A program made the translations under genes and the position numbers. A DNA stretch of 64,000 nt from contig OX344762.1 in assembly GCA_947034895.1 (NCBI GenBank), positions 14,389,501 to 14,453,500 on the forward strand, in the 5' to 3' direction. A model generated the notes under the pieces. It did no database searches. It was not told the origin of the DNA and saw only the letters and a program-made list of their open reading frames with translations. Source of the DNA: Rhytidiadelphus loreus. Taxonomy: Eukaryota; Streptophyta; Bryopsida; Hypnales; Hylocomiaceae. Shown one piece after another: positions 12,831 through 35,402 of this stretch. The first letter of the stretch is position 1; each line of letters starts with the position of its first letter.

Positions 12831-13997
12831 TCTACATGATTGTGATTGATTATTAGACCATGATCATTAGCTAGTGCATGTGATCAATTCTAATGTATGT
12901 ACTTGTAGATCTACAACTAGTGATCTACAACAAGTGATCTACAACAAGTGATTGATTAATTTTGCAGATCATCGATACCATTTTGTATAGGTGATTGACT
13001 ACTACATGGATTATGTAGACATGGTTCACTAAACTTCAATATGTAATGTTGGTCTTTAGTTGAACTTGATTATAACTTGCAGAAGTATTATTCATACTCA
13101 TTCACATTTATTTTGCTTATAGCCAGATTTTGTTGATTTGAAATGCCTTATTGCCAAGATATCTTATTTATTTTTATTTTGGTCACCTCTAAACTACTTG
13201 TTTGTGAATATTGTAGCCACTTTGGAGTGCAACTAGTTTGAGTAATTCGCCATATGGATCATCATACTATATTTCTTGTGTAGCCAAAGTAAATTTCAAT
13301 AATTTTTGCTATAGCCATTGTTATTTAGTTACTAAAGTAATTATTGTAGCCAAAACTTCAAGGTCTAAATAAAACCAGAAAAATCATTGGTTGGCTTGCT
13401 CTTCGATCACTAGAAACTAGAAATGTATGTCAATGCCTTCAACGAGGATAGATGCCTTGTGAGAGCACTAGGGATAGTCACACCTTCTTCACTTGACACT
13501 TGAAGAATGAGAAGTGGTGAGGGTTTGGAAAAGCCAATGGAAAGTTGTGGTGGGTGAAGAAGGTGTGACACCCCTAAAAGATGTGTTTGGAATGGAAAAT
13601 GAATAAATGGAGAATCCATTTACCTAGAAGTAAAGGTTGGAGGTAATTGCCTTGGGTCACAAAGCAAATGAACTGGAGGTTGCGCCAAATGCTGACAAGA
13701 TTAAGAAGCTAGGCATACTGGCTCTGTTATAGATTGAGTTTTGCTTCTGTGATTGTTATAACACTATATTCATTAAAATGGGAGGATCGGACCCTCTCAA
13801 AATGAAATAGTCCATTTAGACGTTAACAATTGAGTTTTAATTCTAGCCAATATCCATTCATAAACACAAAATCTATTAGTTGCAAAGTGTAGTTTCCATT
13901 AAAATGAGAGTTTTGATAGTCACGAATGTACAATTGATTTTGTTTTGTGTAACACTAGTCTTCAAATTCATATAAGTAACGATTAGGTCCTACGCTA

Positions 13998-14240
13998 GAC
14001 ACCAAGTCATGAGCTCCGTGGTTGGTTGTAAGGGGTTATTTATCTCATCCACGCGGTCCGGGTTCGATTCTTCTTGAATTCGTATGAGCGCATGACAGAA
14101 ATACATGACTTGGTGCTGCTAAGTGAGCTTTGCAGGCAGGAAAGTCGTAACGACCAACCAACCCCTACCCAAAATGTGACAAGTACTTTAAACATCATCA
14201 AAATAAAAAGTGGATATGTCCACTCCACTTTTTTTGTAAT
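13998..14240 (+). mobile_element. tRNA-derived SINE-like element
   Basis: An RNA polymerase III box A-like sequence (TGAGCTCCGTGGTTGG, 14010-14025) is followed about 35 bp later by a box B (GGTTCGATTC, 14061-14070), as in a tRNA. The sequence then departs from a tRNA and ends near a T-rich stretch at about 14228. Inverted repeats CACCAAGTCATG (about 13999) and CATGACTTGGTG (about 14104) surround the tRNA-like head. It cannot fold as a complete tRNA, so a SINE is more likely than a tRNA gene. Confidence 0.55.
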
Positions 14241-14556
14241 AATTACTACTATAATTTGAAATGAAATATATACTCAATGATACAAAAAACAAAAAACAAA
14301 TCGAAAAACTATGATAAACGAAACACGACAATATAATAGGAAGTATATTGATATGGTATGAACATTTCATTGTCATCTAAAAACATTAATTGCACTCCAA
14401 AACATCTATACAACAACAAAAACTAAATTAGTAAAAAATCAAATGAAACCTACACCACATAAATATATAAAAACAAATTTGTTATATGAATGAAGAAGTT
14501 GGTAAAATCATAATTAAACCAAATTTACACCATCAATTCATATAAAACTTCAAATA

Positions 14557-17394
14557 TCATGTGTATGATGCAAGACTTTGGTTGATGACTTCAATTTGAG
14601 CCGCCGGAATCTTAATCATGCATTGCACAGTATCTCTTCTGATTTGAGACTTCCATGCTGTCATCAAGGCATTTGTTTCCTCCCAAACCGGTGGTTCAGC
14701 TTCATCGACCTTCCAACGCAAACCTCTTTCACTATCCCATCCTATGTAGTTGTTCTGAACATCCTCATTTCGGGATGTTGGACGAAAGTATTGAATGAGC
14801 ACACAATTTGGTTTCTCTGGATTACAAAAAGGGTTAGACAAAGCCCTTGCAATCCAAACTGGTCGAGTATCAGCATCTGCGGGTCGAATTGCAACAAAGT
14901 AGCCTTCGAAGAGATCTCGAGCGACCCTGAAGGATGGTTCTGGGCGTCCTCGTAAAGGCCCGACGTAGGCGTCATCTTCCCCGAACTCTTCGCGAACCTC
15001 ACCATCTTCATTTAATTCGTCAGCAGCAGTTGCTTCAACACGAGTAGTTGGCCAAAAACCATCCTTCAAAACCAAGGATGGATCTACTGGTTCTAGCAAT
15101 GCTTCCTTCACACCACGCCAATAGTGTATCAAATGCTCATACCGTCTTCGATACTCTCCACTTACATCTGAATCGCACAAATTCTGCCAATATCTCACAA
15201 ATCCAGATATCCCTTTCAGAATGTCCTCCATGCCTCTCATTGTCCTCTGTGGAATTGGCAAAGGTGCCCCACGAGGCCACAAACTTTGCCCTCCTACATC
15301 TTCTTTCCACAACTTAATGCCTCTACCTTCTTCCCCTAGCCATTCTACGTCAGTGCACAACAATTTGTACTTCATGACTGGACACCCACTTGAATCTAGG
15401 TAGAACTTGACTTGTTGTGGCTTCATGTGTCCAATGAGCCTATCATCACCATCAAGAAATGATCCTTCAATAAATCCCTTGAAATCTGGCACCTCTTCTA
15501 TAAGGTGAGGGATAGTGGGAATGGATTCCACATCCATGAAGGACTTCATGAGAGTAGGGATTGTTGGAAAACTCTCCTTCTTCAATAGCATGCTCCATCT
15601 TCCAAACAACGCATCAATGTCATCATGTGTGTGGCCAACAATCATAAAATTTACATAAACTTCACGAAAGATTTTGTTTGCCACAAGTAGAGACCAAAAA
15701 CCAAAAACGAATCTGTTTTTGTTGTCCCCAGTAGCGTTATCCATTTGCACATTGAGAATGGGTGGCAATGGTGTTGCAGGAACCAATGTGTCCGTTGGTG
15801 GGGGTAGTGAGGCTTTACACATCTCTGCGCCTTTCAAGACCGCATCAAACAAAGAGGTAGACCTCGAATTGATGAACAACTGCCGAGAAGAAGACTTTGG
15901 TGGTTGTTCGAGGTCCCGCAACAACTTCGCCATTGAACCAATGGTGTAATTTGAATCATGGGGGAAAAGGTCTAAGCCGTAATGTGCATACCGCACATCA
16001 GCATGACCATGTGCAATCATGCCAGTCACAGACAAAGGCAACTTCATTAGGCTATCCAACTCTTTACTCTTATGAGAGAAGACCGGAGAAGCTGTTTTGG
16101 CATGATCCATCTTGTCATGCATAATTGTCAAACACTCGTGTGGAAAATTATGCGATCGATACCGATTTGCATAGTACAACTCCCTATGTGCTCGAGCTAT
16201 AGCCAGATGTTTATCAAGTAACATCTGCCACTTCAAACAAGTTTGTGATCCAGATAAAGTACCCTTAATAAGCTCTCGTAGTTTGTCACATTTCGCACAA
16301 CGGGCAAAATTATCTCCAGGCTTCTTTACATCGTACTCTGGGAACCTGGAAGATCTAATCTTGCTCAAGTTTGATGAAGAGACCTCCTTCAGTCCGAAAG
16401 CAACATTGGTTTCGTTTATTTTTGCCATCTATCCTTTCCATTGAAAAGTTGCCGGGAGAATCATGGAGACAAACTTGTCTCTGGACTTGAGAGTCCGAGT
16501 ACGATGTGGCATGTGATCCGCCTCTTGCTCAAGAATGCACTTCAACGTAGCTGTAGCTTGTTGAGTATGCATCCTAGTCTTCACTTGCCCAGTATTGCCA
16601 TGAACCGTTGCTTCACGGCCGTCCTTCTTATATGCTTGGTAGCGGTAGAAGGTAGACTCTGGGACCCCAGAAATAAACATCCACGCTCGCATGCAAACAT
16701 CTATCCCATCAATTGTCACCATCCTTCTCCCTGCATAGTCACAATGCATTTGTCTATGCACCTCAGTCTTCATGAAAGCTCTGTGCTTGAATGTAGAATT
16801 CTGGTACATGCGTTCCCGAAAGGCTCGAATTTTCTCTCTCGGAAACGGCTGCACGCAATTTCTGCTACAGCAAACCTTGCTTGAAACTATATTGATAGAG
16901 TCTTGAGTGAGTAGGCCTCTCGTTTTTATGCATGTCTCACGAGGCGGGTTCCGAATGTCACTTGCATACGGACGAACAGATGTTCTCAATGGTGGATTCA
17001 AAAGACTCGCTTGCAAACGATTATAATTATCTCGGGCTTCATGGTCATGCAAACTTGCTCCTCGGCAGTGCACTAATGTGATTGGCTAGACTATCAATGA
17101 GTACACTTGCTCTTCGGGGATGTCAGCCTCAGAAAATGATTTAGAAAGATGAACAGCCACATTCTCATCCCCAAGCGGACCATTCGCTCCAAGCACCAAG
17201 TCCGAGTTCACGCTATGACAAGTACCTTCACCAACAAGTATTCCTTCAACGTTGTATAGAGTTACACACTTTGTGTTCCACAGACGACGAGGAAGACCTT
17301 CGCATTCGGGAACGTCCACAACTGCTACATGAGGCACTTATACCTCAGCGTCCAAGAAGTCCATGTCACTGAAATCCTCAGCCGTGGAATTCAT
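14557..17394 (-). pseudogene. DUF7869/DDE-like transposase gene with three in-frame TAA/TAG codons
   Basis: From the ATG at 17394, which follows a possible 3' splice site, one reading frame runs 946 codons to a TGA without frameshift. It is interrupted only by TAA (17338-17340) and TAG (17086-17088 and 16429-16431). Each is one C-to-T change from a Gln codon. Visible motifs are a Cys-rich segment CCSRNC (about residue 173), CAKCDKLR (about 366), QMDNATGDNKN (about 550) and GHTHDDIDALF (about 587). The last two resemble the core of the DUF7869 family of plant and oomycete genomes, with a DDE/RNase H-like look; I assign this from memory. It is the best transposase candidate for the surrounding 18.6-kb element. 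Either it is freshly decayed by methylation-linked deamination, or the stops are bypassed. I favour decay. Confidence 0.65.
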
Positions 17395-18200
17395 GATGTC
17401 TGTATATTACAATGTCAGAATCAAGAATGATAAGAACTTTATTCATATGAAAATTTACAAAATAGTACTATAAAGAATTCAGTTTCAATAAAACAGGCCA
17501 CAATAGAGAGACAGATCAGCTCGATTCGAGCTGATCTGTAAATATCCCAAATTATCAAGTCTTCCTATGAAATTAGAAACGAACATATTGATGTTGACTC
17601 GTGATCATAATCCAGAACATCTTACTCAATTACATATGAGTTCATGATTTGATATTTAAGCAAAAGGTGAGTAGATATGCAATCAAAACACGTGGAAACG
17701 TAATGTAAACATAAAGGCATATAAGATATTTTAAAAAATGGAATATTTCACCCACTTTCATATCATACTGCATATCAGCTCGAGTCGAGCTGATATGCAA
17801 GGATAGTATATTCAGGTTCAATATTACTAGAGGCGATTTGCATTGATTTGCGTATCAGCTCGACTCGAGCTGATTCACACCTTCTCGTTCAAGTTCATTG
17901 TATATAATAAATTAATATATTCAAGTTCAATGTATTCAGGTTCATTGTATATAGTCAATCAATATTCACACAATGATTCTTAAGTTCAGATGGATCATAA
18001 ATAGATTGAGATGATACATAATGTCTTGCCAACGTAAAGAATATATTAAGATTTGTAAATCAGCTTGAGTCGAGCTGATTAGCGAGATAGATTATTATTC
18101 TCTACCTTTGTTATTCCTTCCGCATGGGATTCACATATGAATAAACTACACATCAGCTCGAATTGAGCTGATATGCTAGCCCATTAGAACATGATTCTAT
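17395..18200 (-). promoter_or_regulatory. 5' region of the DUF7869-like gene with five 21-bp palindromes
   Basis: Palindromes of the type ATCAGCTCGA, centre base, TCGAGCTGAT lie at 17512-17538 (27 bp perfect, centre T), 17770-17798 (29 bp perfect, centre G), 17854-17874 (perfect, centre C), 18059-18079 (one mismatch) and 18152-18172 (centre A, one mismatch). They sit upstream of the first - strand coding exon, in sequence that looks like 5' UTR or intron. Spacing varies (about 260, 85, 205, 95 bp), so this is not a tandem array or a CRISPR. Confidence 0.8.
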
Positions 18201-19180
18201 TAATAGAATCCGGGGTTTGCGGCGCACTTCTCGGAGTTCAGTTCACACTACAATTATTCGATTGTGGAGAAATGTGCTAGGAAATCAAAATGAATTGCAC
18301 CCTGAATGCAACATCATTATCGTTTTTGAAAATGCACAGATTGAATAGAAGTATACAGAATCAACGAACAAAAATCTCAAAAATAAGTCTGCGAATACGA
18401 ATACAAAATCAACGAACAATAATCTCAAAAATAAGTCTGCGAATTCTATGAACGTAGAGCAGTGAAGTGGCTGAGGAATTGCGACTGACTTACAGTAATC
18501 GAAGTGCGGTGAAACACTTCCTCTTAGAATGTAATGGTACTGAAAGCAACGTACTCCTAAAGACCTCTTCTAGACTCCCCAAACATGCACAAAACTAATC
18601 ATTACATGCTGAATACAATCCGGAAAGAAAAAATGCGCAAAGAGGTTCATACAATTGAAGAAGAAGTGGGAAATGAGGTTTGGAATTAGGGTGACGACGT
18701 ACACCTCAATGTATGGCGGGAAGAAAAGAGCGCCATCTTCAAGACGTTTTGAAATGAGAATTTCTGAAAGTCGGGAATCCCTGAATACCATGGCCTTGCC
18801 CACCTTTACCCCAGGAAACGACACAAAATGTTTGATACAGTAGTTGACCCCACGAAAATTGTGGTGTCAGCAAGGTTGATGAGATTCTTTTTAAAAGAAA
18901 ATGTTGACTTTCCTAACTATCGTGGCTCTACTTCGGATCCGCGGCCTCTCGGTTATCTACAACGTCAATATCACGGGATCTTCACATTCCATGTATTAAA
19001 AGTAATATAACAGTTGCCTAGGAGTACCTTTTCAATTTTTAGTAAGTTGGAATATCTTTGTGTCTAGTTTTTTTAAAATGAGTAACTTTCGGGGTTCCCC
19101 CCCCCAAAAAAGGCAATTTAAATCTTCCATAAATAAATTGATAATGAAGGATTCACAGTAACTTTTAGTAGTTGTTGGAT
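18200..19180. other. Non-coding centre of the 18.6-kb element, left part
   Basis: I see no gene here. A short duplicated phrase, AATCTCAAAAATAAGTCTGCGAAT, occurs at about 18375 and 18420 (given in part: CTCAAAAATAAGTCTGCGAA). The rest is AT-rich single-copy sequence that could contain the promoter of the - strand gene. Confidence 0.4.
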
Positions 19181-19182
19181 TA

Positions 19183-19232
19183 GGGTATAGGGTTTAGGGT
19201 TTAGGGTTTAGGGTTCAGAGGTAGGGTTTATC
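19183..19232 (+). repeat. Interstitial telomere-like repeats (TTTAGGG)
   Basis: Three to four consecutive GGGTTTA units with degenerate neighbours (GGGTATA, GGGTTCA). Orientation is G-rich on the + strand. They precede the 188-bp tandem repeats; a C-rich counterpart lies behind them at 20641-20662. Confidence 0.8.
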
Positions 19233-19620
19233 ATTGTTTTGGATTGGCTCTAGGAATCATCAAAACACTTGTATAATCCAATAAAAACACAATTTTCGGG
19301 TTTAGTAAAAATTAGAATTTGACTGACAAATGTTTTGAAACAAATGAATGCAAATGCTTTCAATTGGGAAGCCATTTCATTTTTGCTTCTCTTTATGCAA
19401 TGATTTCTTGCACTTGAAATTCCACAAATATCAATTATAGATAGAGAAGAAGATTCACTACTTATTTCATATGTAGCTAATTCTAATAACAAAGCTTCTC
19501 TACAAAGAAACAAGTGTTTTCATTATTGGTTATATTCCTCTAATCTAATGTAAAAATATAAACTAACGAACATATGAAACAAAAACTTAAGCACCCAACC
19601 TACTGAAGAACTCCCAAAAA

Positions 19621-20555
19621 TATGCACTTCGTAGTCTCTCACTTTGAATGATTTTGTACGTGAAACTAAAAATTGGGGCATTCAACGGTCTTGCCCTATA
19701 CTTTAATGACTGTCCAAAAAAATATAATGTCATGAAAATTCACGTAAAGAAAATGGTAAAACATGTTTGTGCAAGTTGCAATTATTCCTAAACTCATGAA
19801 TTCAAAAGAATATGCACGTCTTGATGGTCACTTTCAATGATTTTGTACGTGAAACTAAAAATTGGGGCATTCAACGGTCTCGCCCTGTACTTTAATGACT
19901 GTCCAAAAAAATATAATGTCATGAAAATTCACGTAAAAAAATATCGAAAACAAGTTGTGCAAGTTGCAATTATTTCTAAATTCATGAATTCAAAAGAATA
20001 TGCACGTCTTGGTGGTCACTTTCAATGATTTTGTACGTGAAACTAAAAATTGGGGCATTCAACGGTCTTGCCCTGTACTTTAATGACTGTCCAAAAAAAT
20101 ATAATGTCACGAAAATTCACGTAAAAAAATATCGAAAACATGTTGTGCAAGTTGCAATTATTTCTAAACTCATGAATTCAAAAGAATATGCACGTCTTGG
20201 TGGTCACTTTCAATGATTTTGTACGTGAAACTAAAAATTGGGGCATTCAACGGTCTTGCCCTGTACTTTAATGACTGTGCAAAAAAATATAATGTCACGA
20301 AAATTCACGTAAAAAAATATCGAAAACATGTTGTGCAAGTTGCAATTATTTCTAAACTCATGAATTCAAAAGAATATGCACGTCTTGGTGGTCACTTTCA
20401 ATGATTTTGTACGTGAAACTAAAAATTGGGGCATTCAACGATCTTGCCCTGTACTTTAATGACTGTCCAAAAAAATATAATGTCACGAAAATTCACGTAA
20501 AGAAAATGGTAAAACATGTTGTGCAAGTTGCAATTATTCCTAAACTTTTGAATTC
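19621..20555. repeat. Tandem repeat, five copies of a 188-bp unit
   Basis: The unit with GTACGTGAAACTAAAAATTG and AATTCACGTAAA begins at about 19648, 19837, 20025, 20213 and 20401 (steps 189, 188, 188, 188). The inner copies are nearly identical; the first and last carry a GTAAAGAAAATGGTAAAACATG variant. Each unit reads as a 63-codon frame whose TGA overlaps the next ATG, a by-product of the period and not evidence of coding. Confidence 0.92.
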
Positions 20556-20640
20556 AATGTGCGATTTATTTCATTGGTGCTTATTTCGACCTTGTATGTT
20601 AAATTATAATTTAAAGGTATGAATCGGTCATTGTACACTA

Positions 20641-20662
20641 TACCCTAAACCCTGAACCCTTT
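20641..20662 (-). repeat. Telomere-like repeats in inverse orientation
   Basis: CCCTAAACCCTGAACCC reads as TTTAGGG-type repeats on the - strand. Together with 19183-19232 it brackets the 188-bp tandem array in inverted orientation. Confidence 0.6.
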
Positions 20663-21480
20663 AACAACTTCAAATCTAAATATGAAATTCATGTGAAACG
20701 CTACTACGTGAAAACTAAGTGACTTGACTACTCAAACCGTGTAGTACTAGTTACAATGATGCCAAATGAATGATGTTTGTTAGATGACATTATTTAATGT
20801 TATACTAAAACCGAAAACCGAAATTAGAACTCTAAAACCGAAATTGATTTTTGAAGTCTAAAACCAATGAGCTTTTTAATTGTGTCATAATAACAAAGTT
20901 GCCTCCGTCACACAAAAGTTAAATATTAACAGTTGCTTCTCTGATTTGTTAAATCTCATTGTGTACAAACAATAGTGAAGTTAGTCATGAATCCTCCTAG
21001 CCTCGTGCAGTGCATCTTTACAGTAAAACATACAAAGCATGTAAAGAATGATTTTCGGTTCATGAAAGATTGACCAAAAAACAATCCATGCAAGAGAGAA
21101 GTGCAACTATGCGTCTTACTTCCAAATTTGGTGTAAGAAGTAAATGATTTCTAGAGTATTATGACATTCAACCAATGTTTAATGTTTTAGGATCATAAGG
21201 TTAACTAAAGATAAAGGATTCATTAACCCAGAATTTTATGCTTCAAGCTATGCATTGTGCTATTACTATCTTGCATTAAAGTTTATTTGTATCTTCCAGA
21301 AGGTCAGTCTACTGTGTAGGTATTGAACAAAGAGTATTCGCGAAGGTGGTCCACAAGTATCGCTCCGGGTATACATAGGTCCGGAGTAGGCAATTGAAGC
21401 CTGGGTTTAGGGCTGGACAAGTTCGGGTATTTTGGACACGTCCAGGCATGCCATACGGGTCCAGGTATACGCAGCTCCAG
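20663..21480. other. Non-coding stretch
   Basis: AT-rich at first, then moderate GC from about 21300. No gene or repeat structure that I can support. Confidence 0.35.
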
Positions 21481-21860
21481 CACAGTGACGGAGGTAGGGT
21501 TTCGCGATCTTGTTTTTTTCTCTTCCTCATTTGTCGCGCAATGTTTTGACACTGGCGTTTGTTTTTGGTTTCCATTGCGTTAGGATTTGCTGTGGTTTTA
21601 GCTGCTTGTGAGCATCTTCTTTCTTGTAGTTGGATTTGCGAAATTGAAGAGGGCTTCTGTGCGAGCATTTGCATTTCCGAGATTAAAGAGGGATTTTTCT
21701 GCGAGTATTCAGGTTCTACTGCGACCGTTTGGGCTCTTGTGTATGTGCTTTGGGAAGCTCCAGGGAGCACGCTGGAGTGGGGCTTCTACTGCGAGCGTTT
21801 GGGTTTCCTTCACGGAGCCTTCACGGAAGGGAGCACGCTGGAGGGGGGCTTCTACTGCGT

Positions 21861-22115
21861 GCCTTTGCATTCGTGACGTTGTGGCCTTCACGGAGCGACA
21901 TTGAGGCGGAGCTCGCGAGGAGCTGGCCTTCACGGAGCGACACTGTGTGCCTTTGCATTCGTGACGCTGTGGCCTTCACGGAGCGACATTGAGGCGGAGC
22001 TCGCGAGGAGCTGGCCTTCACGGAGCGACACTGTGTGCCTTTGCATTCGTGACGCTGTGGCCTTCACGGAGCGACATTGAGGCGGAGCTCGCGAGGAGCT
22101 TGCCGACGCTGTTGT
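21861..22115. repeat. GC-rich tandem repeat, about three copies of 88 bp
   Basis: GCCTTTGCATTCGTGACG recurs at 21861, 21949 and 22037. Each unit contains a shorter internal repeat, GGCCTTCACGGAGCGACA, twice. Related degenerate pieces extend back to about 21770 (GGGAGCACGCTGGAG). The GC-rich, pyrimidine-rich context (21480-22190) before the + strand genes could be a promoter or 5' UTR region, but no start site is visible. Confidence 0.8.
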
Positions 22116-23034
22116 CTTCACGGAGCGACATTGAGGCGGAGATTGACGCTCACCCGACTGCAGGAGTTTGCAGGGACATTTGAGGAAGGTTAGTTTCTTT
22201 GCTGGACTCTTGGATTCAATTCTTGGGCGTTGGGGTTTGTTGCACTTGTTGTGTGTTTGGTTTCCTTCCTGGGTGCTGGGCGCTGGGCGCTGATGGTTTC
22301 CTTTGCTGGGCGTTGGCTGTGACCTTAGGGTTTAGACTTTAGATTGATGCTCGTGTGTGTTTGGTTTCCTTGCTGGGTGCTAGGCGCTGGTGCTACTCGC
22401 TTGGTTTCATTTGCTTTGCTAAACCGCTGTGACCTTTTTCTACAATTTGGGATTGCTTTTGATTCTGTAGGGTTTAGATTGAGGCTCTAGTTTTCAGTGA
22501 CCATGTTTTGCAATGCGGAGTTGCTTTGAAAATTAAAGTGACTTTGTAATTTCCAGTCAATGCCAATTTCGTGGTTCTGAAATTTTTGTGACTTACTGAA
22601 TGTGTGAGTTTAGGTATTCGTTGTTTTGAAACGTCTATGAGTTCGTGAATGTGTTTTTCTTGCAAGTGTGTGAGTTTCTTTGTGAATTTAAAGTTGTTAT
22701 TTGCAAATGTTGTGCGTACTTGCCAATTGCGCAAATGCTCATGTGAGCTTCTGTCTGTCTGAAATTTAGTAATTTCTTTCAAATGTTGAGTGATTAATTT
22801 GTTGTTCATCTTGACAATGTTGTAGGATTTGGAGCTCCATTTGTCTTGTGCGTTTTAGGATTTTGACAGTCAAGGTTTTCACTTCCGAAATTTGCAAGTG
22901 AGTTTCAATTATCAGTTCTCTACCAAATGTATAGGTTCTCACTTTGGGTACTGGACTTGGTGTTCAATGTCCAAGGTTCGGCTTGGCATTTAGGGTCTCC
23001 ATTTAGGTTCTCACTTTGGGTTCAGGGTTTGGGG

Positions 23035-23085
23035 TTCAACGATTAGGGTTTAGGGTTCAGTGATTAGGGTTTAGGATTTAGCGAC
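23035..23085 (+). repeat. Degenerate telomere-like repeats
   Basis: Several GATTAGGGTTTAGG and GGGTTCAGTG phrases occur in a row, with further TTAGG/TTCGG variants back to about 22960. They lie about 100 bp before the first palindrome upstream of the ParB-like gene. Confidence 0.5.
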
Positions 23086-23180
23086 CAGAGTCCCCAATCA
23101 AAATTGAAACCCTAATTAAAACAGAGAACTCAAAGCAAAAGTCACAGCTAAACCCTATAAAAAAACCACGACTAGTAATT

Positions 23181-23581
23181 GCAGATCAGCTCGATTCGAG
23201 CTGATCTGCTGTGTTTTTTCAGTACTCCCATTCCCCTCATGACCAAATCTCAAAAAATAAAAAAATAAAACCAAGCAGATCAGCTCGAGTCGAGCTCACC
23301 CGCAGCAACAAGTCAGCGTTAACTTTCTCAAACATTCACTGCTAACTCATGAAGTCAGCGTTAACCTTCTCAAAAATTCACGAAGTAAAGTGTTTCTAAA
23401 AATACTTTTTAAACATTAAACCTTACGAATCAACTCGATTCGAGTTGATCCGCTAAACAATACATTCAAAGTTGAACATACAAACGACCAAACCATAAGT
23501 TTTAGACAAACTTGTGCAGTCCTACTCGTACGTTAATTAAGAGATGTTTAAATCGAACGGATCAGCTCGATTCGAGCTGAA
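23181..23581 (+). promoter_or_regulatory. Four 21-bp palindromes upstream of the ParB-like gene
   Basis: Copies lie at 23181-23209 (29 bp perfect, centre T), 23275-23297 (right half damaged), 23429-23449 (perfect but with changed arms, ATCAACTCGA and TCGAGTTGAT) and 23561-23581 (one extra A near the right end). The third copy carries matching changes on both arms, so symmetry is kept. A 3' splice-like site (ACATGCAG, ending 23619) lies between the last copy and the ATG, so this is probably 5' UTR intron. Confidence 0.8.
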
Positions 23582-23620
23582 TCACAATTGTCACTCATCA
23601 TTTGCAACTGAACATGCAGG

Positions 23621-26011
23621 ATGGAAGATCAGCTTGAAAGCTTAAACATGTACTTCCAAAAATCGGAGGTTCAGTTCTCCGAAGAATGCGAAGGACTGGA
23701 CGAAATCCTTATCGAAGGCGAATACAGGGAATTTAAAGAACCCGAAAGGGTTGAATCCTGGAGTCTATTCATGGTTCCTTTTACAAATTTAATAATCTTC
23801 TCCTACAAGTTCAAGAACGCCCAGGTCTTCATCCAGTTGTCATTCGAGGAGAAAGTCAAAGACGTTGAAGTTGACGCCCATCCCACAATAAAAATTAAGT
23901 GCGTCACTGCTAAACCGGGGATCCCAAGTGCCGAGCAATATCACTTCACAATTTGTATTAATTCTCTCCTCGTTCCATTTTCTATGACCCCCTTCTTGCA
24001 GAGCCTTGAGCCTACTCCATTTAGTGACGAGATAAAGGAGCTCGAAAAGAAAATTGACAGAAGGGAATATCAGAACGGAGACGGGACCCCCCTCAACAGA
24101 AAAAGGTTGTGCTCTAAAATTCGAGCGCTATTCAATGACTTCAATACTCTAAAGGGGAAGCTTGAAATGCAGACAGCTTTGAATAAACCCCGATCAGTAT
24201 CAATTGACATAGTCAGCGGAGGTGGTAGTGAAGCCTCCCGCAGGAACACTCCCCAAGCATCCGGTTCTGGTCGCGGTAAGAGGAAATCCCTAGCACAGGA
24301 GAGGCCACCACCGCAAAAAAGCGGCAAGAGAAATGAGGCGTCCCCGTCAACAAACAAGCCGTTGGAGAGAGCTTCAGATCAATCTGGACTGGCTGAGGGA
24401 AGTTATGTCGAGGAAATGATGAATGTCCCTCACTCTCGAGCCACAGATAGGAAACCTGACTATAAGCTTGTGAGCGAAGCGTACAAGCGCTTCTGGACGA
24501 CCTGTGAGGACGCATATGTCTTCAAGGTGGACGACAAGAAGGAAATACCGATCGAACAGCTTATTGGAGCTCCGGCCACGTTCAATATTTGTTCGAAGGA
24601 GAACCGGCTTGTCGAGGATATGGTAACATACTTGGTCAACATGCCAGACATGTCGACAAAGCAAACACTTTGTGTTATGCTAGTAGGAGTCAGCATGAAG
24701 CCATCAAGCTGGGATGAAATCAAGAACAGAAAGTTCTACATAATCAATGGACAGCACAGTGTAGACGCGAGCAAGAAGATCGTCTCTGAGAACAGTAAAT
24801 TTCCTGACGACATCAAAGATCAATTTCGGAAATGGAACTGTTTCATTGTCTGGTCCACCGACGGGGAGAAACTTCGAAATATCTCGGCCTACTACAACCG
24901 GGTCAACCATTTCGTCGCAGCTAAGCCGTCGTGGGCAACTAACATTCTGGGAGCGCGCACAGTGTGGATGGAGATGGGGAGTCCAAAAAATCCCCTCCAA
25001 GCTCAGTCCGTGGGGACAGTCACTGCCACGAGGCGGACTATTGAAAACACTCGTAACGCAGCAAAATTCCATGTATGTATATGAGCTCGACTCGAACTGA
25101 ATTGCTTTCCTTAATTCCTCTTGAGTTGGTAGAATAAAATACATCATCCATTCATGCAAATCAGATCGACTCGAGTTGATATGCAATTGCTAATTCCTTT
25201 CTGTCCTTATTGTTCGCAGGAGTTCGAGAAGGCTGTATACGTTCGGTTCTCGTTGATCGACGTCAATAAGAGCTTATCAATTTCCAAGAAGAAGGGAAAG
25301 GAAGAGAAGCTTAAACTCACAAATGAGTTAAAGTTAATAACAGCTCCAGAAGACGTCTATAAACTCTGGAGCGATGTCATTACAAATGCCGCACACGGAG
25401 AGCTCATTAACGCGGACACGGAGAAGCAGTTCAACGCAAGGACAGACTGGAATCCCGAGAACTGTATGCTGACCAGAGAATTCTTTAAGTTTCTTGGGAA
25501 TTTGAGTTATGATGAACTTGGGAAGCTCGCAATGCATATTCTAAACCAATCTAGTGGGAAGCGCAATCTGCCATATCCGAAGGTGACTATCAAGTCCATC
25601 TCATCGGTCCTAGATAGTTGCTATACAACAAAGGAGTGGGCAGAGTGGCGGAAACGCAAGCATTTGGTCAAGAAGGAGTTGCATACAATCAACCCAGATC
25701 TCGGTTTAATGAACGCTAGAAATGAAATCATAACTAAAAATTGGAAGGCGTTCAAGAAGGACTGGTGCGTTACGAAAGCCACCATGGATGTTCTTTTCGA
25801 CCGGCTTGGAGAGGCGTACTTTGCTCAAGCAAAGCAAGTCAGATCAAAGAACAAGAGCTGTGCAGAACTATCGGAGCACGCCTATGAGTTCTTCAAGGTC
25901 TTCCTAGAGCACAGGAAGAACTTTGTGAAGCCCACGGCGGCAGGATACTACAGAACGTACGAAACCGAGAAGAATACTCACTCAGATTGGATGAAGTACG
26001 CTGTCGTGTAG
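23621..26011 (+). CDS. ParB/DGQHR-like protein of the large element (two exons)
   Basis: The exons are 23621-25072 and 25220-26011, with a GTATGT donor and a TTCGCAG acceptor, giving about 747 residues in phase 0. Residues about 1-130 form an acidic N-terminal region I do not recognise. About 195-270 is a low-complexity basic and Ser/Pro linker. About 290-440 look like a ParB/sulfiredoxin-type fold. That region has IPIEQLIGAP, a helix-rich NRLVEDMVTYLV stretch, and FYIINGQHSVDAS (NGQH at 376-379) in the place of the ParB DGQHR motif. Known members of that fold bind DNA or hydrolyse nucleotides; the Asp-to-Asn and Arg-to-Ser differences make activity uncertain. The second exon is Lys-rich and unknown. 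Two damaged palindromes lie inside the intron. The frame has no internal stop. Confidence 0.65.
25081..25183 (+). repeat. Two diverged 21-bp palindromes inside an intron
   Basis: The copies at 25081-25101 (GAGCTCGACTCGAACTGA core) and 25155-25183 (TCAGATCGACTCGAGTTGAT core) lie in the 147-bp intron of the ParB-like gene. They make up about a third of it. Both have mismatches between arms. Confidence 0.7.
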
Positions 26012-27337
26012 AGAGAGTTTGCCTCGGGAAATCACGAGGATTCTGGCTGCGACTAGAAATGGCTCGGGAATGAAATAAATTGTAACTTGTCGAATCTTCA
26101 AATCTTCGAGTCTTCAAATCTTCAAACTGCTACTCGTTGTCCTATCCTGTTGTGTTTCTAAATAGGCCAAGGGTTAAGGTAGGGTGATAAGAAACCACGG
26201 GCTTCGGACGTGTAAAACGGGACGGCCAGACCACGAGCTGAGCCGTCCGAGGGATTGGATCCTAAATTTCAAACCCACGGTGACCAGCAAACTTGCCTCA
26301 CCAGTGGGAACAACATAAAAGTCTCGACCATGTGGGCAATTAACCCCACTTCGTCGCATCCACAACACCAAATGAGGCTAGTATTGGTGTGAACCAAACT
26401 GCCCGCAACAATAAAATGAAATTTACAAAGCCACAAGCCACACACACACAAACACACAAGTCTTCCAACTCCTTCAACTCCAACTCCCAAGCTGATCTTT
26501 GGATGAGTGTCTTTGTTGATCTATAACTCCAAATGAACTAAATGATAGCTTTTCGGAAAGCTAAAACAATCATCTACTTCTCCTCCAAATTTCATACAAG
26601 TCTAAGACTCTGTCCAACCTCTATGGCCATCCAAAGTTTCGGCCTTGAGAAGGGAAAGGCAGCAGACCTTCCTTCGCTTCCACACTCACAACTTTCTCAT
26701 ACAAACTCCAAATAGAACGAATGATAGCTTCATGAAAAGCTAACACAATTTCCTACACTCCCTCCAAATTTCAAGGCAAAACAAGAACCTGTCCGTCTTT
26801 TATTGTCGGTCGAAGTCTCTGCCTCTTAATTTTAAAGGCAACAAACCTCCCTCCACTCAAACTAGCACAACTTTTGCTTCACAACTCCAAATCAAGCAAG
26901 TGAGATCAATTTGAAAACTACACACCATGATACACAACACCTCCAAATTTCATTTCAAAATACTTCAAATTCACAACACAATGAGCCCTCAAACATTCGG
27001 GCCTTTCTAAACTCACAACGGGAGAGAAGATGAATAGTGTTCCCTTTTTTCTCCACCTTATCTCTACTCTAACCACACAAACAAGTGGGGTCAGCCCCTA
27101 ACTCACTCCCAAAGCTCTCACATCAATAATTGAGCCCTTATTTGACCCCACAACTATCTCTTTATCTTTATCTTAGAAAGAAAATTCACTTCAAGTTCAC
27201 CTAGAAGGAAAACTATTTCATTAATTCCTTTCTATCTTTTCTTTCTCTATTTTCAACACCCAAAATGAAATCTACAAACAACTAACATAAAATAAATGTC
27301 TTCTCAAAGGTAAAAAACTAAAGTCTTCAAAGAAACT
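26012..27337. other. Non-coding, with three degenerate ~180-bp repeats
   Basis: A phrase CTCCAAAT...GATAGCTT...GCTAA.ACAAT...CTCCAAATTTC recurs at about 26527, 26707 and 26887, each time diverged, suggesting an old tandem triplication or an eroded retroelement end. Plain AT-rich DNA follows. I see no gene. The 3' UTR of the ParB-like gene is probably within the first 150 bp. Confidence 0.45.
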
Positions 27338-27796
27338 TCACTCCATCTTCAAGAACTTGAGAATTCGCTTGATGGTAGTAGCAACAAACTCAACACGATC
27401 CACCTTTGTCAAGGGATTGACCGGCCCCTCTAACCATCGTTGGTGACCGCGACTCCCTTTAATAGGCCTGACCATACAATAGTATTGATCGTCGTTAAGA
27501 CCTTCAAAACTCCCTTCGAATGTCACTTCTTGGGTACCAGGTTCAACACACACAACCTGCAACAGGATCACTAGTGCTCGAGCTCCACGCTGTAGGTTCC
27601 CGTGCCATCGCTGCTCCACACGGGGTTGCTTTGGCGGTCGAGAAGGCCCAGATTCATCTTGAGGACGCTCGTGCGATAATGAAAGACCTAGCGGTTGAAG
27701 AGGTTGAGCCAGTAGTTGAGATAACGAAAACTCAAATTCCGATTCTGGTAGAGGCTCCTCATCCTGAGACTCAGAAAAAACCCTCCAATTCGACAT
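27338..27796 (-). CDS. Hypothetical protein, 152 residues, antisense within the cluster
   Basis: From the ATG at 27796 the frame begins MSNWRVFSESQDEE and is acidic and Glu/Ser/Pro-rich for about 45 residues. A Pro/Arg stretch follows, and then a more ordered C-terminal half (VILLQVVCVEPG, YYCMVRPIKGSRGHQRW) ending KRILKFLKME. I do not recognise it. It lies on the strand opposite to its neighbours in the large element and may belong to a nested insertion or be the start of a retroelement gag-like frame. It has no introns or recognisable promoter. Confidence 0.35.
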   Translation of the reverse strand: MSNWRVFSESQDEEPLPESEFEFSLSQLLAQPLQPLGLSLSHERPQDESGPSRPPKQPRVEQRWHGNLQRGARALVILLQVVCVEPGTQEVTFEGSFEGLNDDQYYCMVRPIKGSRGHQRWLEGPVNPLTKVDRVEFVATTIKRILKFLKME

Positions 27797-28047
27797 ACTG
27801 AAATCTATAACATACAATAAAAAAACTACTTCAAGTTTGGTGGCATTCTAAGATGATAACCTATTCTTATATAGATGGCTCATGTCATTATGAGAAGGCG
27901 TCATCTTGAAGCTACTAAGGATGATGTCATCTTTATTTTTTATATTATTAAAATCAAATCTATGGAAATAATGTATTACTATGCATTTTTACACTATGTA
28001 CACATTTACAGTGCGACAACGCATGGGTATCGGATACACCAAGGAGA

Positions 28048-29828
28048 ATGGCCCTCGGTGTGATTGATTTTAGGAACTTGCCAGGGATTGAGAAGAAGGA
28101 AAAATCAACAGTCGATAATCCTTTCTTCATTGAAGTTATTACATCTTTGTGCAAAGCAAAGAAACCGACATTCGAGGAAGTTCCGTCGTGGCTCTTCATC
28201 TGCGCAGATGAAAAAGAGCAGGCTCAAATACTTAGCTTCGTAGAATCGAACGAAGTCTTGAGCTCGTATACTGCTGACTTTGCAATGTATAGCGCGGGCA
28301 AACACGATAGATTGTGCAATCTTCCAGTGTCAAAGACGCCGAAGAAAGTGTTGCTCCTGTTCTTACAATGCATAAGCAATACGAATCCTGTTGAAATTCC
28401 AGAAGAGTTTGGCTGCCCTGAAACAGCTCGGTACATGAAGGCAAGGGCATACAGCGAGCTTGAGTACCGTATTTACAATACGGAATTACAGATGGAATTT
28501 TATTTATGGCTCATTAAGAAGTTCTGCAATCCGGGCATGTGCGTATTCTCAGGATTTGCAGGTGGAAAATTTACATGCGCTGCTATGGTACGAACTAGTC
28601 CCGAAGAAATGAGTGCAACCTAGTCTATCATGGTGATTGTATTGACTTATGATCAGTTTTGTTGATTCATGTGTATGATCAGCTCGACTCGAGCTGATTC
28701 GTTACGTGATTGTACTCTTCGTCTAACGTTTAGTGTTCGGTTGTGCAGATGAGTTCAGTTGACATTTACGCATTAGGTCCATCAGAGCTCGGACCCTGGT
28801 GGCAAGATATCTGTACGAAGGCCTTGACTTTAGACAAGTCGGATTTCTTGGAGAGTGGATATCTTGTGCAGTCTTCAATTGTTACTCCAGGATCACAGAC
28901 CCCTTCATCGTCAAGGCGTATATTGCGATCCAGTCAGGAGTCACCTCGCACTCATCCGAGGAGGCCCCCTACTCCAGTTGTCGACGATGTTGAGGAGTTA
29001 TCCTCGGATGACATTGACGATGGGGAAGACATTGATTTGATGGATGTCGAACGGTTGGATGATATGCCGACGCCTACAAGTCGCATGTTCGGCGATGTCC
29101 CCGGATCCTCTGGTTCGTCGATGCTGCCGCCCTCGTCACAGACTCCATCTGGGACTGCGCAAAAGAGAAAGAAACGAGATACCATGGCAAGCGTCGTTCA
29201 GCAGATGGCGGATATGAACCAGAGAAATAACGAAACCATCGCAAGAATGCAGGAGCAGAATGAGTTGTCGCAGAAGCGAACTGAGCTCGCTATTGCGACA
29301 TTGCGAGCCGAACAGGCAGAACAGCGGGAACTCAATATGCAGATGCATAAAAATACGCAACAGTGGATGCAAAACAAGTCTCAAACGAACAGGGACTTCT
29401 TTCAGGCCCTATTGATAGGGAAAGTGATTCCACCGTTAGCGTCAATTGCGCCACCGGAGTCGTCAGTACAGTTGTTGCTTCGGGAACATCCGACTACGTC
29501 CAACGTCAGCGGAGCATCAAGCCATCCGGAGCCGCTGAGCCAACGCCCTCCTCTACCTGCCGATGTACCACATTCTCCACCTCTTCCTCCATCACATGAT
29601 CCGGCGGCGGCGGCTGCTATATCTTCACCTCTTCCTCCTACGGATGATCTGACGGCAGCGGCTGCCACACATGACTCTCCGTCAGATGAGCCCCTTGGTG
29701 GATTGGAAGTGGCATCATCATCAGCGGATATTGCCATTGGGCACAACCTGACCTTGGATGCTTCCGACGTGGAAGTCGGAAGTGGTGTGCAACCCGCCGA
29801 TGATCCACCAGCAGGTTGTGCCCAATGA
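28048..29828 (+). CDS. Beta-class DNA methyltransferase-like protein with coiled coil (two exons)
   Basis: Exon 1 is 28048-28587 (possibly beginning at 28012 after a TTTACAG acceptor) and exon 2 is 28749-29828, joined in phase 0 (donor GTACGA, acceptor TTGTGCAG); about 539 residues. Exon 1 follows the order of beta-class N6/N4 amino-methyltransferases. A DNPF at residues 23-26 stands where DPPY/F is expected. Later LIKKFCNPGMCVFSGFAGGK has the form of the motif X/motif I block (LI..F..PG..V.D.F.GSGTT), with FSGFAGGK at 167-174. Key residues are changed, so catalysis is doubtful. Exon 2 has an acidic region (EELSSDDIDDGEDIDLMD), a Gln/Glu-rich coiled coil of about 80 residues and a Pro/Ala-rich tail. 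One palindrome lies in the intron and another 25 bp after the stop. Confidence 0.55.
28678..28698 (+). repeat. 21-bp palindrome in the intron of the methyltransferase-like gene
   Basis: It is a perfect copy (ATCAGCTCGA, centre C, TCGAGCTGAT) lying 50 bp before the 3' splice site of the 161-bp intron. Confidence 0.9.
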
Positions 29829-29852
29829 TCACCCGTGCATTGTTTTGTAGTT

Positions 29853-29872
29853 TCAGCTCGAATCGAGCTGAT
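29853..29872 (+). repeat. Palindrome copy downstream of the methyltransferase-like gene
   Basis: TCAGCTCGA, centre A, TCGAGCTGA with flanking T's; the arms match over 9 bp. It begins 25 bp after the TGA stop and lies between two genes. Confidence 0.85.
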
Positions 29873-30056
29873 TAGAGTGGTTTTGCGGCAAGTGTAGATT
29901 TCTGTAGATATCACATTCTTTTTTGACGAACCATCATGCCGGAGGGGTGTGGGTCCTAGAGTTCAGATGTTTTGATCTCAGTTTTGTATCCTGAAACTCA
30001 TTTTAAGAGCATGTAATATATGATTTTCTCACGGACCATTATGTACTCTATGTTCA

Positions 30057-31993
30057 ATGGCAGGCCCTCTGAATCTTCCAATTGTGAATGATATTTGTCA
30101 ATCCCCCTGCATTCACACTTGTATGCAAGCCCCACCGATCATCAATGACATCTCTGCACCCACTAACTGCTCCAATGAACATATCGCCCAAGGCTCTGAT
30201 TTGGGTACTGCACCTGCTAGACTTGCTGATGCGGATCACTTATCGGGTGCTACAGAGAGAGAGGTACGATAACTCTCAAACAATTATATCTACTCCTAGG
30301 ATATTTCGGCATCGCGTTTTGTTGTTGATCACCATTGATTTCTTGAATGATCTGTTTCTCTTGGACGTAATAAGCCAATATTTTGATTGTAACTGGTTCC
30401 ACAATTCGTCCGTTTCCTAGCAGGAATGCGATCCTATCGTAGCTCTTGAGGGAACCTCTGAGACCATCCATCGTCCATTGAGGTCCGGGGTGGTGGAGAA
30501 GTGGGTCAACGTCGTCTTGGACCTCAATGGGATTCTATGTGTAGCCGAAGATTGGAAGTCCAAGGGGCCGGTGGCACAGTTCAACCGTTACTCTGAGCCG
30601 CATTCTGCGACTGTTGCCGCGATTGTGGGGCCGAAGGCGGTGTTCGTCCGGCCCAATTGCTCTACGTTTCTAATTGAATTAGAGAAGATTGCATTTATTT
30701 CAGTATGGAGCTCCATGAAGAAATCCACCACTGATGAGGTTTCCAAGTACCTATTCCGTGACGGAGTTTTGCCCATTCATATTTTGGGACAGGACTCCTG
30801 CAAAACTGTTAAGGTCAGGGATAGGGCCGGAAGATTGACGTCCTATAAGGAACCCGGGACGCAGAAGGATTTGTTTCTTAAGAATATGGATTCTCTCCTC
30901 TCTGGGTTTCGGGGATGGTTTACTTGCGAGAATACCATTCTAGTGGACGATAGCCCTCGGAAGCATATCATGAACAAGCCTGAGAATGTAATACTTCCAG
31001 ATTCATGGTCAAATCGGGGAAATGGGGACAAGGATTCGTTTCTCATTAATGTCCTACTGCCTTGGTTCAAACGATTACATGTCAGTCGCAGCGAGGGACT
31101 AAGGTCGTTTCGCTCAAACGGCCCTGGGAGAATTGGGCGTAGAATGCTCTGTGATGAGAGGGGGCGGCGGGAGTATGACAGGCTCTTGGAGGTAGTTCGT
31201 GGATCAGCTAGTGTTAGCTAGTGCTATTTCGAGAGGTATGTAGTTCAGCTTGGATCGAGCTGATTTATGATACATTTTTGGACGTCGGAGTGTTTTCATT
31301 GTTCCTCAGCGGGTGGGTCGAATGTGTATTTACGAATTTGAATTTGTTGCAATACAGAGGGCCAACACTTCCACGTCCCCAGCATCAGATGGTCGCCTCC
31401 AATGCCAAGTGTCAGCCGACTCTATTTTTGACTATGGTCAATATGTCATCCTCAGTACCGGGAACTTCTTGTACTCCGCGCCCACTGTCAACTCGTCTAT
31501 GGACTTCTCTGTGATGCCTATTGAAGAAGGGGTCGTAGATAGTCCTCCTGATCGGAAGCAACGCTTGGCGGTGTCCTGTTCACCATCGCCACTTCGCTCT
31601 ACGGACCCTATTATGTTGTCCAATTCGCCGTCCGCATCAAACAGATTTACCCAAAGAAGGCTCTACGAAGACGCCAACTATCCAATGTCTACCCCATAGT
31701 TGAATCTGCAAGTCCTGTCTCATGCATGTCAAGATGTTGTGAAGGTCTCTGTTATACCACCCACGCTCCCTCCTCAGTGTGCACCGTCTCACGTGAAGAG
31801 GTTCAAAAGAAAACATGATGACCCACCATTTAGTCACTCCTCTAGTCGCAGTTGGAATTCATGGGAGTGGAGGTCTTTGCGAGCACAACGAAGGCAACAA
31901 TTTCGCGATGAGGGGAGATCTATCAAAACTTATAGTCGAGGACCAGAGATTCTAAAGGCCATGGAGAAGTTGAGGACTAGCTCGAATTGTTGA
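30057..31993 (+). CDS. FCP1/HAD-type phosphatase-like protein of the large element
   Basis: Proposed exons are 30057-30263, 30424-31191 and 31358-31993, all phase 0 with GT-AG ends. The second exon carries a HAD/FCP1-like domain. VVLDLNGILC is the nucleophile motif (Asp102 kept; the second Asp of DxDx is Asn104). VRPNCSTFLIEL and ISVWSSMKKST follow, as in FCP1-type CTD phosphatases, then VDDSPRKHI with Asp244-Asp245 as the metal motif. Loss of the second motif I Asp, the usual acid/base, predicts weak or no phosphatase activity. The third exon is Ser/Arg-rich and contains one in-frame TAG (31697-31699), again a possible CAG change; if exon 2 is not spliced, the protein ends at 31221. The second intron carries a palindrome. 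Confidence 0.6.
31244..31264 (+). repeat. Diverged palindrome in the intron of the FCP1-like gene
   Basis: TTCAGCTTGGATCGAGCTGAT keeps the right arm intact and has changes in the left arm. It lies in the proposed intron 31192-31357. Confidence 0.75.
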
Positions 31994-32358
31994 CAATGGA
32001 CTGTACTATAATCCCGATTGTTAGTCTTCTATAGACATTGCGTACAAGTGTGTCCACGGACTTTGTCCACAATAGATCTTATGTATATCATTCCAGGTCT
32101 TTGTTAAGAATTCGTCTTCCTTAATACATGATGTGTATTAGTATTTCAAGATTATTTCCACGTCATTGTCATTTGCCTCACAATTGTTGTTTGTTGTGCT
32201 ATATTTCCGCTATCATTTACATGTTTTGTTTGCCAATACATTGCATTTCTATTTTCATGAGAGAAATTCATATGTAAGTTTGAAATTTATGTGATTGTTA
32301 GGACTCACATTTCTCTGGAAAACTCTCATTTTAATGAATATAGTGTTTTATATGTTAA

Positions 32359-33182
32359 CCCCAAAGTGACATCCAATTTCCAGGCGGGCATTGAACTAAA
32401 AAGAGTTGCTCAAATATAAACATTACTTCGATAGCATCTGAGGACTTCCAGATGCATCTCACCATGCAATCCAATCGATCGTTTGTACATGTACATCGTC
32501 AAAAAAAATCAACCGTAAAATCCTCTTTCATGTTGCTTTTTTCTTCCCGTTTAGGATGGTACAGTGCAGCAAAAAATCACTGATTCAGCACAAAAGTTCA
32601 TGTCGGGGTCGTTTCACTTGTAGAGGACATTGAAATAGCGCTAACAATAAACTACAAAGTTCTAGACCGCAACATAATCTACCGAGTCCACTTGAGAAAA
32701 TTGAAAAAACTTCAAATCCTTGCCGCACACAAATGACGTAAGACAAGCATGTCCACGTGGTGACTTCCACATCCTTGAATTTCAAAAAAAAAATACAAAG
32801 GGAGAGCACATATTTTGGATAATCGCTTCGGTGCAACTCAAAATCTTTCAAGTACAAGCAGTGAAAAAAAAATTGAAGTGAATTGGACGCTCTGATCTGT
32901 AGTTTCTGGACAGAAAACACCCAACACTACCAAACTTCTTCGTGAACCCTAATGCTTACTTGGCGTGGCTCACAGCACTAGTTTTTTGGTAGTCCTAAAA
33001 TTCAAACGCGTCCCAAAAATTGAGAATTCATCAGATTATTGAATGGAAGATGTCATTGGGAAGAACTCTCGAAGATCTACCAAACATCTGTAGAATACTT
33101 TTTCGATTGACGCCTCGAACTGTAAGTTCTGTCCTCCCAAAAAACTACGAGGACACTTTATGTCCTGTTTGACGCTTTGGGG
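32359..33182. mobile_element. TTAA-flanked element (piggyBac-like, 824 bp)
   Basis: It is flanked by TTAA (32355-32358 and 33183-33186). Termini are CCCCAAAGTGACA on the left and, as complement, CCCCAAAGCGTCA on the right. It starts just 4 bp outside the TTAT flank of the 18.6-kb element. There is no coding capacity. Confidence 0.65.
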
Positions 33183-33186
33183 TTAA

Positions 33187-34797: not shown

Positions 34798-35402
34798 ATT
34801 GATTTCATCTAATACAAAATTTAGACATTCAATTTGAAAAATAGCTTATATAGGGACCTTGAAGTCAATAATATATAAAAAAATTGTTTGAATACAATCA
34901 TCATAATTTGGATTATTTTTTATATTGAAAAAGATGTTCACAAGTTTTTACTTTTGAATATTATTGAAAATGAAAAGTACTCAAATTGTAGCAAAATAGT
35001 CCTTTTTTACTCTATCATGTAATTATACATAAACATGATTTTTTTGGATTCAATCACATCATTATTCATCAAAAATGAGAACCTTTTTCTACCATTGAAA
35101 AACTTGACATGTTGACATCTGAACTTCAATTGGAACTAGAATAAAGAAGTTTTTATTTTTTGATGAATAAAATGGTATTAGGCTTAACATGACTTGAAAT
35201 ATTGGACAAAAAGGACTAAACTACCTAAAATTAATAGATTAGCATTAAGAAACAATAGCAAAAAAAAAGTGACATTGCAGATTTCAGTGGGCTTGACCCC
35301 TTTTGTCATACATTTGAGTGTGATTTGATCCACATATATATACATATAGTATACATTGCCTTCTACTTCATCATTTCTTGTAAACACTATTCATTTGTAA
35401 GA

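What the first reader, a model, noticed from the sequence alone, without database searches (positions are those of the whole stretch)
17512..31264. Fourteen copies of a 21-bp palindrome confined to the large element
ATCAGCTCGA, one variable base, TCGAGCTGAT occurs 14 times, at irregular spacing, on both gene arms and nowhere else that I saw in 64 kb. The centre base takes all four values while the arms stay symmetric. Such a site could bind a dimer encoded by the element, for example the ParB-like protein in a parS-like role, mark introns, or be a methylation target.
Basis: partly seen in the sequence, partly recalled or inferred. Interest (0 to 1): 0.9.

Follow-up and report, generated by a model that had tools for sequence, protein, structure and literature searches.

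The report
Transposon's co-evolving palindromic docking sites
A giant plant jumping gene carries many copies of one short mirror-image DNA word beside and inside its genes, and related jumping genes each use their own version of that word, as if a protein made by the element reads it to recognise its own DNA.

Summary
The palindromes are real: 14 places (5 exact, 9 with 1-3 mismatches) against 0.01 expected by chance. All lie inside an 18.6-kb DNA transposon (13760-32347; inverted ends, 4-bp target duplications) in a 407-Mb plant, probably bryophyte, genome. The exact form occurs 145 times genome-wide; 49 of the 50 sites listed lie at pieces of this element. The window's sites are non-coding, and 0 of 327 sites in 56 copies lie in exon 1 of the ParB-like gene.

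The strongest evidence is concerted change. Sister subfamilies carry ATCAGCTCGA, ATCAGCGCGA, TTTAGCGCGA, TTYAGCTCGA or CTTAGCGCGA half-sites. Both arms and most sites of an element share a variant, and no listed element holds exact sites of both types searched. Peptides read into the same intron in relatives can encode such palindromes (9 of 21 tails, 0.01 expected).

The likeliest reader is the element's own protein: a ParB-fold domain plus a probable methyltransferase-like domain without the DPPY motif, akin to ParB-methyltransferase accessory proteins of algal giant transposons. I propose sequence-specific self-recognition that works like Arabidopsis VANC anti-silencing. Site recognition is strongly inferred; the binder's identity is likely; anti-silencing is a hypothesis.

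The parts
13760..32347 (.). Whole DNA transposon, 18,588 bp
   Evidence: 36 of 40 other left-end matches start at query 949-961, i.e. 13748-13760 (capped list); 6 other copies end at 32347-32350
13760..13784 (+). Left terminal inverted repeat AACACTATATTCATTAAAATGGGAG; preceded by TTAT at 13756-13759
   Evidence: flanks of other copies; compared by eye
32323..32347 (-). Right terminal inverted repeat (24 of 25 bases as the left one, by eye); followed by TTAT at 32348-32351
14557..17399 (-). DUF7869 gene, the transposase candidate; read as ORFs 14557-16428 and 16429-17073 plus an upstream part (start by eye)
   Evidence: Pfam PF25273 E 2.9e-42 for 14557-16428; 71 matches in the genome, capped
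17515..18172 (.). Palindromes 1-5 (17515, 17774, 17854, 18059, 18152) just upstream of, or in a 5' leader intron of, the DUF7869 gene
   Evidence: splice-like signals read by eye
23185..23581 (.). Palindromes 6-9 (23185, 23279, 23429, 23561) in the 5' leader or leader intron of the ParB-like gene
   Evidence: comparable leader sites in 59 of 60 copies
23621..25072 (+). Exon 1 of the ParB-like gene: N-terminal domain (weakly PH-like), linker, ParB/Srx-fold domain (residues about 300-432)
   Evidence: 88 matches genome-wide
25073..25219 (+). Intron 1; holds palindromes 10 and 11 (25081, 25160)
   Evidence: splice signals by eye; sites at similar places in most other copies
25220..25995 (+). Exon 2 of the ParB-like gene (end approximate)
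   Evidence: compared by eye with P. patens models P0014 and P0072
28012..28623 (+). Exon 3: probable adenine-methyltransferase-like fold without DPPY motif; motif-I-like FSGxxGGKxTCAA
   Evidence: relatives such as P0077, P0079, P0092 read exon-2 end and exon 3 as one frame; P. patens models join them; fold matches; motif check
28678..28698 (.). Palindrome 12, exact, between exon 3 and the start of the coiled-coil gene
28749..29828 (+). Coiled-coil, Ser/Pro-rich protein (MSSVD...), in the same order in P. patens models
   Evidence: coiled coil by eye
29852..29872 (.). Palindrome 13, between the coiled-coil gene and the NIF gene
30056..31218 (+). NIF/FCP1-type HAD phosphatase-like gene (first exon by eye)
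   Evidence: Pfam PF03031 E 7.5e-15 for 30421-31218
31244..31264 (.). Palindrome 14, in or after the NIF gene, next to a GTATGT donor-like signal

Best explanation
The palindromes are recognition sites of a factor encoded by the transposon that binds as a symmetric dimer, most likely the protein that combines a ParB-fold domain with a probable methyltransferase-like domain. They sit in the 5' leader or introns of, or next to, each recognised gene of the element. By binding copies of its own subfamily, the protein marks the element as 'self' and keeps its genes expressed (anti-silencing or auto-activation), in the way VANC proteins act on VANDAL transposons. Shown: the sites, their symmetry, their limitation to the element within what was examined, concerted subfamily-specific change, and the ParB fold. 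Inferred: dimer binding and the identity of the binder. Hypothesis: the effect on silencing.
Confidence: 0.55

Rival explanations
1. Self-methylation mark: the ParB/methyltransferase-like protein methylates adenines or cytosines at the palindromes, so that element DNA is tagged chemically.
Against: [DNSE]PP[YWFHL] was found in 0 of 41 relatives (37 of which cover the WLFI strand before which or at which it would be expected) and in 0 of 3 P. patens models. The model is of low confidence (pLDDT 61), so an unusual catalytic motif cannot be excluded.
Confidence: 0.12
2. The transposase candidate (DUF7869) reads the sites, for assembly of the transposition complex or for auto-repression.
For: Five sites lie next to its gene; the gene is in the same element.
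Against: Sites are not subterminal: the nearest are 3.8 kb and 1.1 kb from the ends. DUF7869 is 81-99% alike in the paired elements while exon 1 of the ParB-like gene falls to 58%.
Confidence: 0.12
3. RNA-level element: each palindrome forms a hairpin in leader or intron RNA and controls splicing or stability.
For: Sites lie in leader regions and introns; in several subfamilies one lies directly after the intron-1 donor.
Against: Single-arm transitions that keep a G.U pair are not favoured (126 vs 141 that break it; shared ancestry not corrected, many copies decayed).
Confidence: 0.1
4. The sites are bound by a host factor (transcription factor or CG-reader) that the element exploits.
For: CpG-containing palindrome; genes carry sites in the leader.
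Against: A host factor gives no clear reason for subfamilies in one genome to switch type wholesale.
Confidence: 0.08

Closest known systems
ParB-methyltransferase accessory proteins of algal giant DNA transposons (Sola1-1_Ec32 of Ectocarpus; green and red algal parallels cited there)
   Same: Giant DNA transposon (21.5 kb there) with a ParB-like plus DNA methyltransferase protein encoded on the strand opposite to the transposase (passages of PMC12477816)
   Different: Here a plant; the methyltransferase-like part lacks the canonical motif IV; the passages seen name no recognition site, which is what this finding offers
VANC / VANDAL anti-silencing of Arabidopsis
   Same: Short motif concentrated in introns and upstream non-coding regions of one TE family; motif types differ by subfamily and are proposed to co-evolve with the protein (passages of PMC5735166; abstract of PMC10398659)
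   Different: VANC motifs are 9-bp, in one orientation, in tandem arrays; these are 21-bp palindromes at irregular spacing; the proteins were not compared here
Bacterial ParB-parS
   Different: GxxR box (recalled) reads GQHS; no ParA-like match seen; 21-bp site with variable centre, many sites, some in introns
En/Spm TnpA binding repeats (recalled, no call)
   Same: Element protein binds a repeated motif in its own element and counters its methylation
   Different: TnpA sites are subterminal; these are internal, by the genes

Membership tests
VANC-type anti-silencing system | Motif concentrated in non-coding parts of the protein's own TE family | tested here: met
   0 of 327 sites in exon 1 (56 copies); 14 of 14 window sites outside recognised frames; 49 of 50 listed sites at element pieces
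VANC-type anti-silencing system | Motif types diverge by TE subfamily | tested here: met
VANC-type anti-silencing system | Motifs arrayed in tandem in one orientation | tested here: not met
   palindromes at irregular spacing
VANC-type anti-silencing system | Protein binds motif and removes DNA methylation | not testable with these tools
   needs binding and methylation assays
ParB-parS partition system | ParB/Srx N-domain fold | tested here: met
ParB-parS partition system | GxxR-type nucleotide-binding box (recalled) | tested here: not met
   N376, G377, H379, A383 invariant, S380 nearly invariant in 28 aligned sequences: NGQHS
ParB-parS partition system | ParA partner gene | tested here: inconclusive
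   no ParA-like Pfam match among 9 element ORFs scanned
Algal-type ParB-methyltransferase transposon accessory protein | ParB-like and methyltransferase domains in one transposon-borne gene, opposite strand to the transposase | tested here: inconclusive
Algal-type ParB-methyltransferase transposon accessory protein | Intact methyltransferase motif IV ([DNS]PP[YWF], recalled) | tested here: not met
   0 of 41 exon-3 relatives, some of them fragments
Sola DNA transposons | 4-bp target-site duplication (recalled) | tested here: met
   TTAT, CTAC, CGTG, TGAA, CGTA in 5 of 6 copies with both ends read; none in the sixth
Sola DNA transposons | Sola-type transposase | not tested
   no Sola reference was held; DUF7869 was not compared with it
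RNA hairpin element | Excess of G.U-keeping single-arm changes | tested here: not met
   126 vs 141

The most novel reading that the evidence does not exclude
A eukaryotic transposon has turned a bacterial-type ParB plus a dead DNA methyltransferase into a self/non-self chromatin system: the protein loads at parS-like palindromes in its own introns and leaders and spreads over the element to keep silencing off, and subfamilies escape each other by switching protein and all sites together.
Probability: 0.25. Interest if true: 0.95.

Novelty: new variant of a known kind. Interest (0 to 1): 0.8.

Why it matters
ParB-methyltransferase accessory proteins were reported in algal giant transposons, but no target site was given in what I could read. 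This offers a candidate target, with at least five natural variants in one genome, so specificity can be tested directly by swapping proteins and sites. If confirmed, it would be another case of transposon self-recognition by a co-evolving protein and motif, built from bacterial-type parts, and would make the evolution of anti-silencing directly testable, possibly in the laboratory moss Physcomitrium patens, which has the gene.

Tried and rejected
Rejected: chance repeat or tandem array (shuffles; irregular spacing). Genome-wide common motif unrelated to the element. Subterminal transposase sites (distances from the ends). Known RNA family: no Rfam match at gathering score in the window. RNA hairpin as the main reading.

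Limits: the genome searches score only the best candidates (88 ParB matches, 71 DUF7869, 40-41 DNA matches) and print 50 sites, so counts are lower bounds. 60 of 87 ParB copies were read in DNA, the window's included; the other 27 were not fetched. L034 had no site by the threshold, only two remnants with 4 mismatches. Sites were counted only if 7 of 10 arm positions were symmetric, which raises agreement at every position; the contrast between variable and constant positions carries the weight. L016, L032 and L033 (17 sites), whose offsets were shifted, were left out of the exon-1 check. The DUF7869 anchors were a part of the list plus one left-end match. P. patens gene models that join exons 1-3 also run on into the next genes, so a model join alone is weak; relatives with exon 2 and 3 in one frame are the better support. 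The majority-label trees ignore sampling of sites. Identity of organisms behind unnamed relatives is unknown.

Full report
WHAT IS THERE. The window lies in a 407-Mb genome with five large contigs (contig lengths). Flanking genes are plant-like by my reading: a cation-transporting P-type ATPase and a germin-like reading frame (by eye). Relatives of the element's ParB-like protein with a named source are from the moss Physcomitrium patens, so the host is probably a bryophyte; it was not named to me. A DNA transposon runs from 13760 to 32347. Its left end is shared by 36 of 40 other left-end matches and its right end by 6 other copies. It has about 25-bp inverted ends. Five of six copies with both ends read have 4-bp target duplications of differing sequence; the sixth has none. 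One arm (minus strand) encodes a DUF7869 protein, the transposase candidate. The other (plus strand) encodes, in this order, a ParB-like protein, a coiled-coil protein and a NIF/FCP1-like phosphatase. P. patens gene models P0071, P0072 and P0074 between them hold the same order. I take 23621-25072, 25220-about 25995 and 28012-28623 as three exons of one gene: P0014 spans the first two, and relatives such as P0077, P0079 and P0092 read the end of the second and the third as one frame.

THE PALINDROMES. Fourteen places match ATCAGCTCGA-N-TCGAGCTGAT with up to 3 mismatches, 5 exactly; 0.01 are expected. All lie in the element and outside the reading frames I recognise: five at the head of the DUF7869 gene, four at the head of the ParB-like gene, two in its first intron, one before the coiled-coil gene, one before the phosphatase gene and one at its end. 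In some sites the symmetry runs on for a few bases.

GENOME-WIDE. Exact sites: 145, reversed control 0. Of the 50 listed, 49 are within 10 kb of a ParB-like, DUF7869 or left-end match. ParB-like exon 1 has 88 matches, 87 full or near-full copies. I read 60 of these 87 in DNA (30 close, 30 divergent). Of the 60, 59 carry at least 3 sites, 344 in all. In the 56 copies whose start is in register, 0 of 327 sites lie inside exon 1. One decayed copy (L034) has none by that threshold, only two remnants.

CONCERTED CHANGE. Divergent subfamilies mostly do not have the window's palindrome; they have their own: ATCAGCGCGA, TTTAGCGCGA, TTYAGCTCGA and CTTAGCGCGA half-sites. Arms agree at the variable positions far more than independent draws would (pos 7 0.93 vs 0.52, pos 1 0.77 vs 0.47, pos 3 0.73 vs 0.46; sites were pre-selected for symmetry, which raises all positions, yet the constant positions show no excess). 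Sites at two different places in one element are more alike at these positions (0.78, 10 elements) than sites at the same place in different subfamilies (0.48, 90 comparisons). On the tree of exon 1 the majority base changes 2, 5 and 1 times at positions 1, 3 and 7, against shuffle minima of 13, 12 and 12; this shows inheritance with the gene and does not by itself prove co-adaptation. A at position 1 is found in two separate clades, with T and with G at position 7. Type C (TTTAGCGCGA) has 68 exact sites genome-wide, control 0. Of the 50 listed type-A sites 46 fall at 11 ParB copies; of the 50 listed type-C sites 36 fall at 13 ParB copies; no copy has both. Sites 4.3-9.1 kb upstream of the gene, on the DUF7869 arm, are of the same type (24 A, 7 C). 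The unassigned sites (4 and 14) may belong to copies beyond the capped list. Some elements (L038 and relatives) mix T and G at position 7, also between the two arms of one site; they look like intermediates.

CONSERVATION. Across subfamily representatives the 20 arm columns keep 0.85 majority identity while flanks keep 0.47 (13 sequences, leader site) and 0.51 (12 sequences, intron site). None of 74 of 75 relatives compared is above 76% identical to the copies read here, so these are other genomes or unread subfamilies. Codon ambiguity makes this an inference, not a reading.

DNA OR RNA. Single-arm transitions that would keep a G.U pair in RNA (126) are no more frequent than those that break it (141). 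This argues against RNA hairpins as the main constraint, though copies share ancestry and many are decaying.

LITERATURE. [quoted passage not shown] The two works cited there were not read (one not held; the other a 2011 book chapter seen only as a reference). Passages of PMC5735166 and the abstract of PMC10398659 describe VANC proteins and their motifs in VANDAL introns and upstream regions, with subfamily-specific motif types. In the listings of the searches I made I saw no report of such palindromes; subscription journals are mostly not held.

MECHANISM. Most likely: the ParB/methyltransferase-like protein binds the palindromes as a dimer, in copies of its own subfamily, and keeps their genes accessible or active. 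Shown: sites, symmetry, restriction to the element in what was examined, concerted subfamily-specific change, ParB fold, linkage. Inferred: dimer binding, identity of the binder. Hypothesis: anti-silencing rather than methylation, repression or clamp-like spreading.

Noticed in passing
C3 of the genome, 49-85 Mb (outside the window): 47 of 87 ParB-like copies lie on C3 (21% of the genome), 42 of them beyond 49 Mb, many with stops: this arm looks like a graveyard, perhaps non-recombining or sex-linked.
   Followed up: partly
window 32355-33186: An 832-bp dispersed repeat starts 8 bp after the transposon's right end; 33 further matches at 90-96% identity in the capped list. The element may have inserted at or beside it.
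   Followed up: no
window 1169-7320 and 56766-62945: Direct repeats about 55.6 kb apart, 74-99% alike by segment, each with a 1077-aa P-type cation ATPase reading frame (the second frame by length and place): a segmental duplication around the transposon.
   Followed up: no
window 19639-20630 and 21854-22117: 188-bp and 88-bp tandem repeats in the middle of the element between the two gene arms.
   Followed up: no
window 30056-31218: NIF/FCP1-type phosphatase-like gene carried by the transposon, its start also in P. patens gene models; could act on the RNA polymerase II tail, which would fit a role in expression.
   Followed up: no
window 27338-27817: Minus-strand reading frame of 159 aa inside the long second intron of the ParB-like gene, no Pfam match.
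   Followed up: no
window 35328-36687, 48371-49228: Long imperfect inverted repeats (505 bp at 94%, 298 bp at 90%), probably foldback or MITE-like elements.
   Followed up: no
subfamily of L036-L038, L065, L066, L069: Sites with G on one arm and T on the other at position 7, possible evolutionary intermediates of the site switch.
   Followed up: partly
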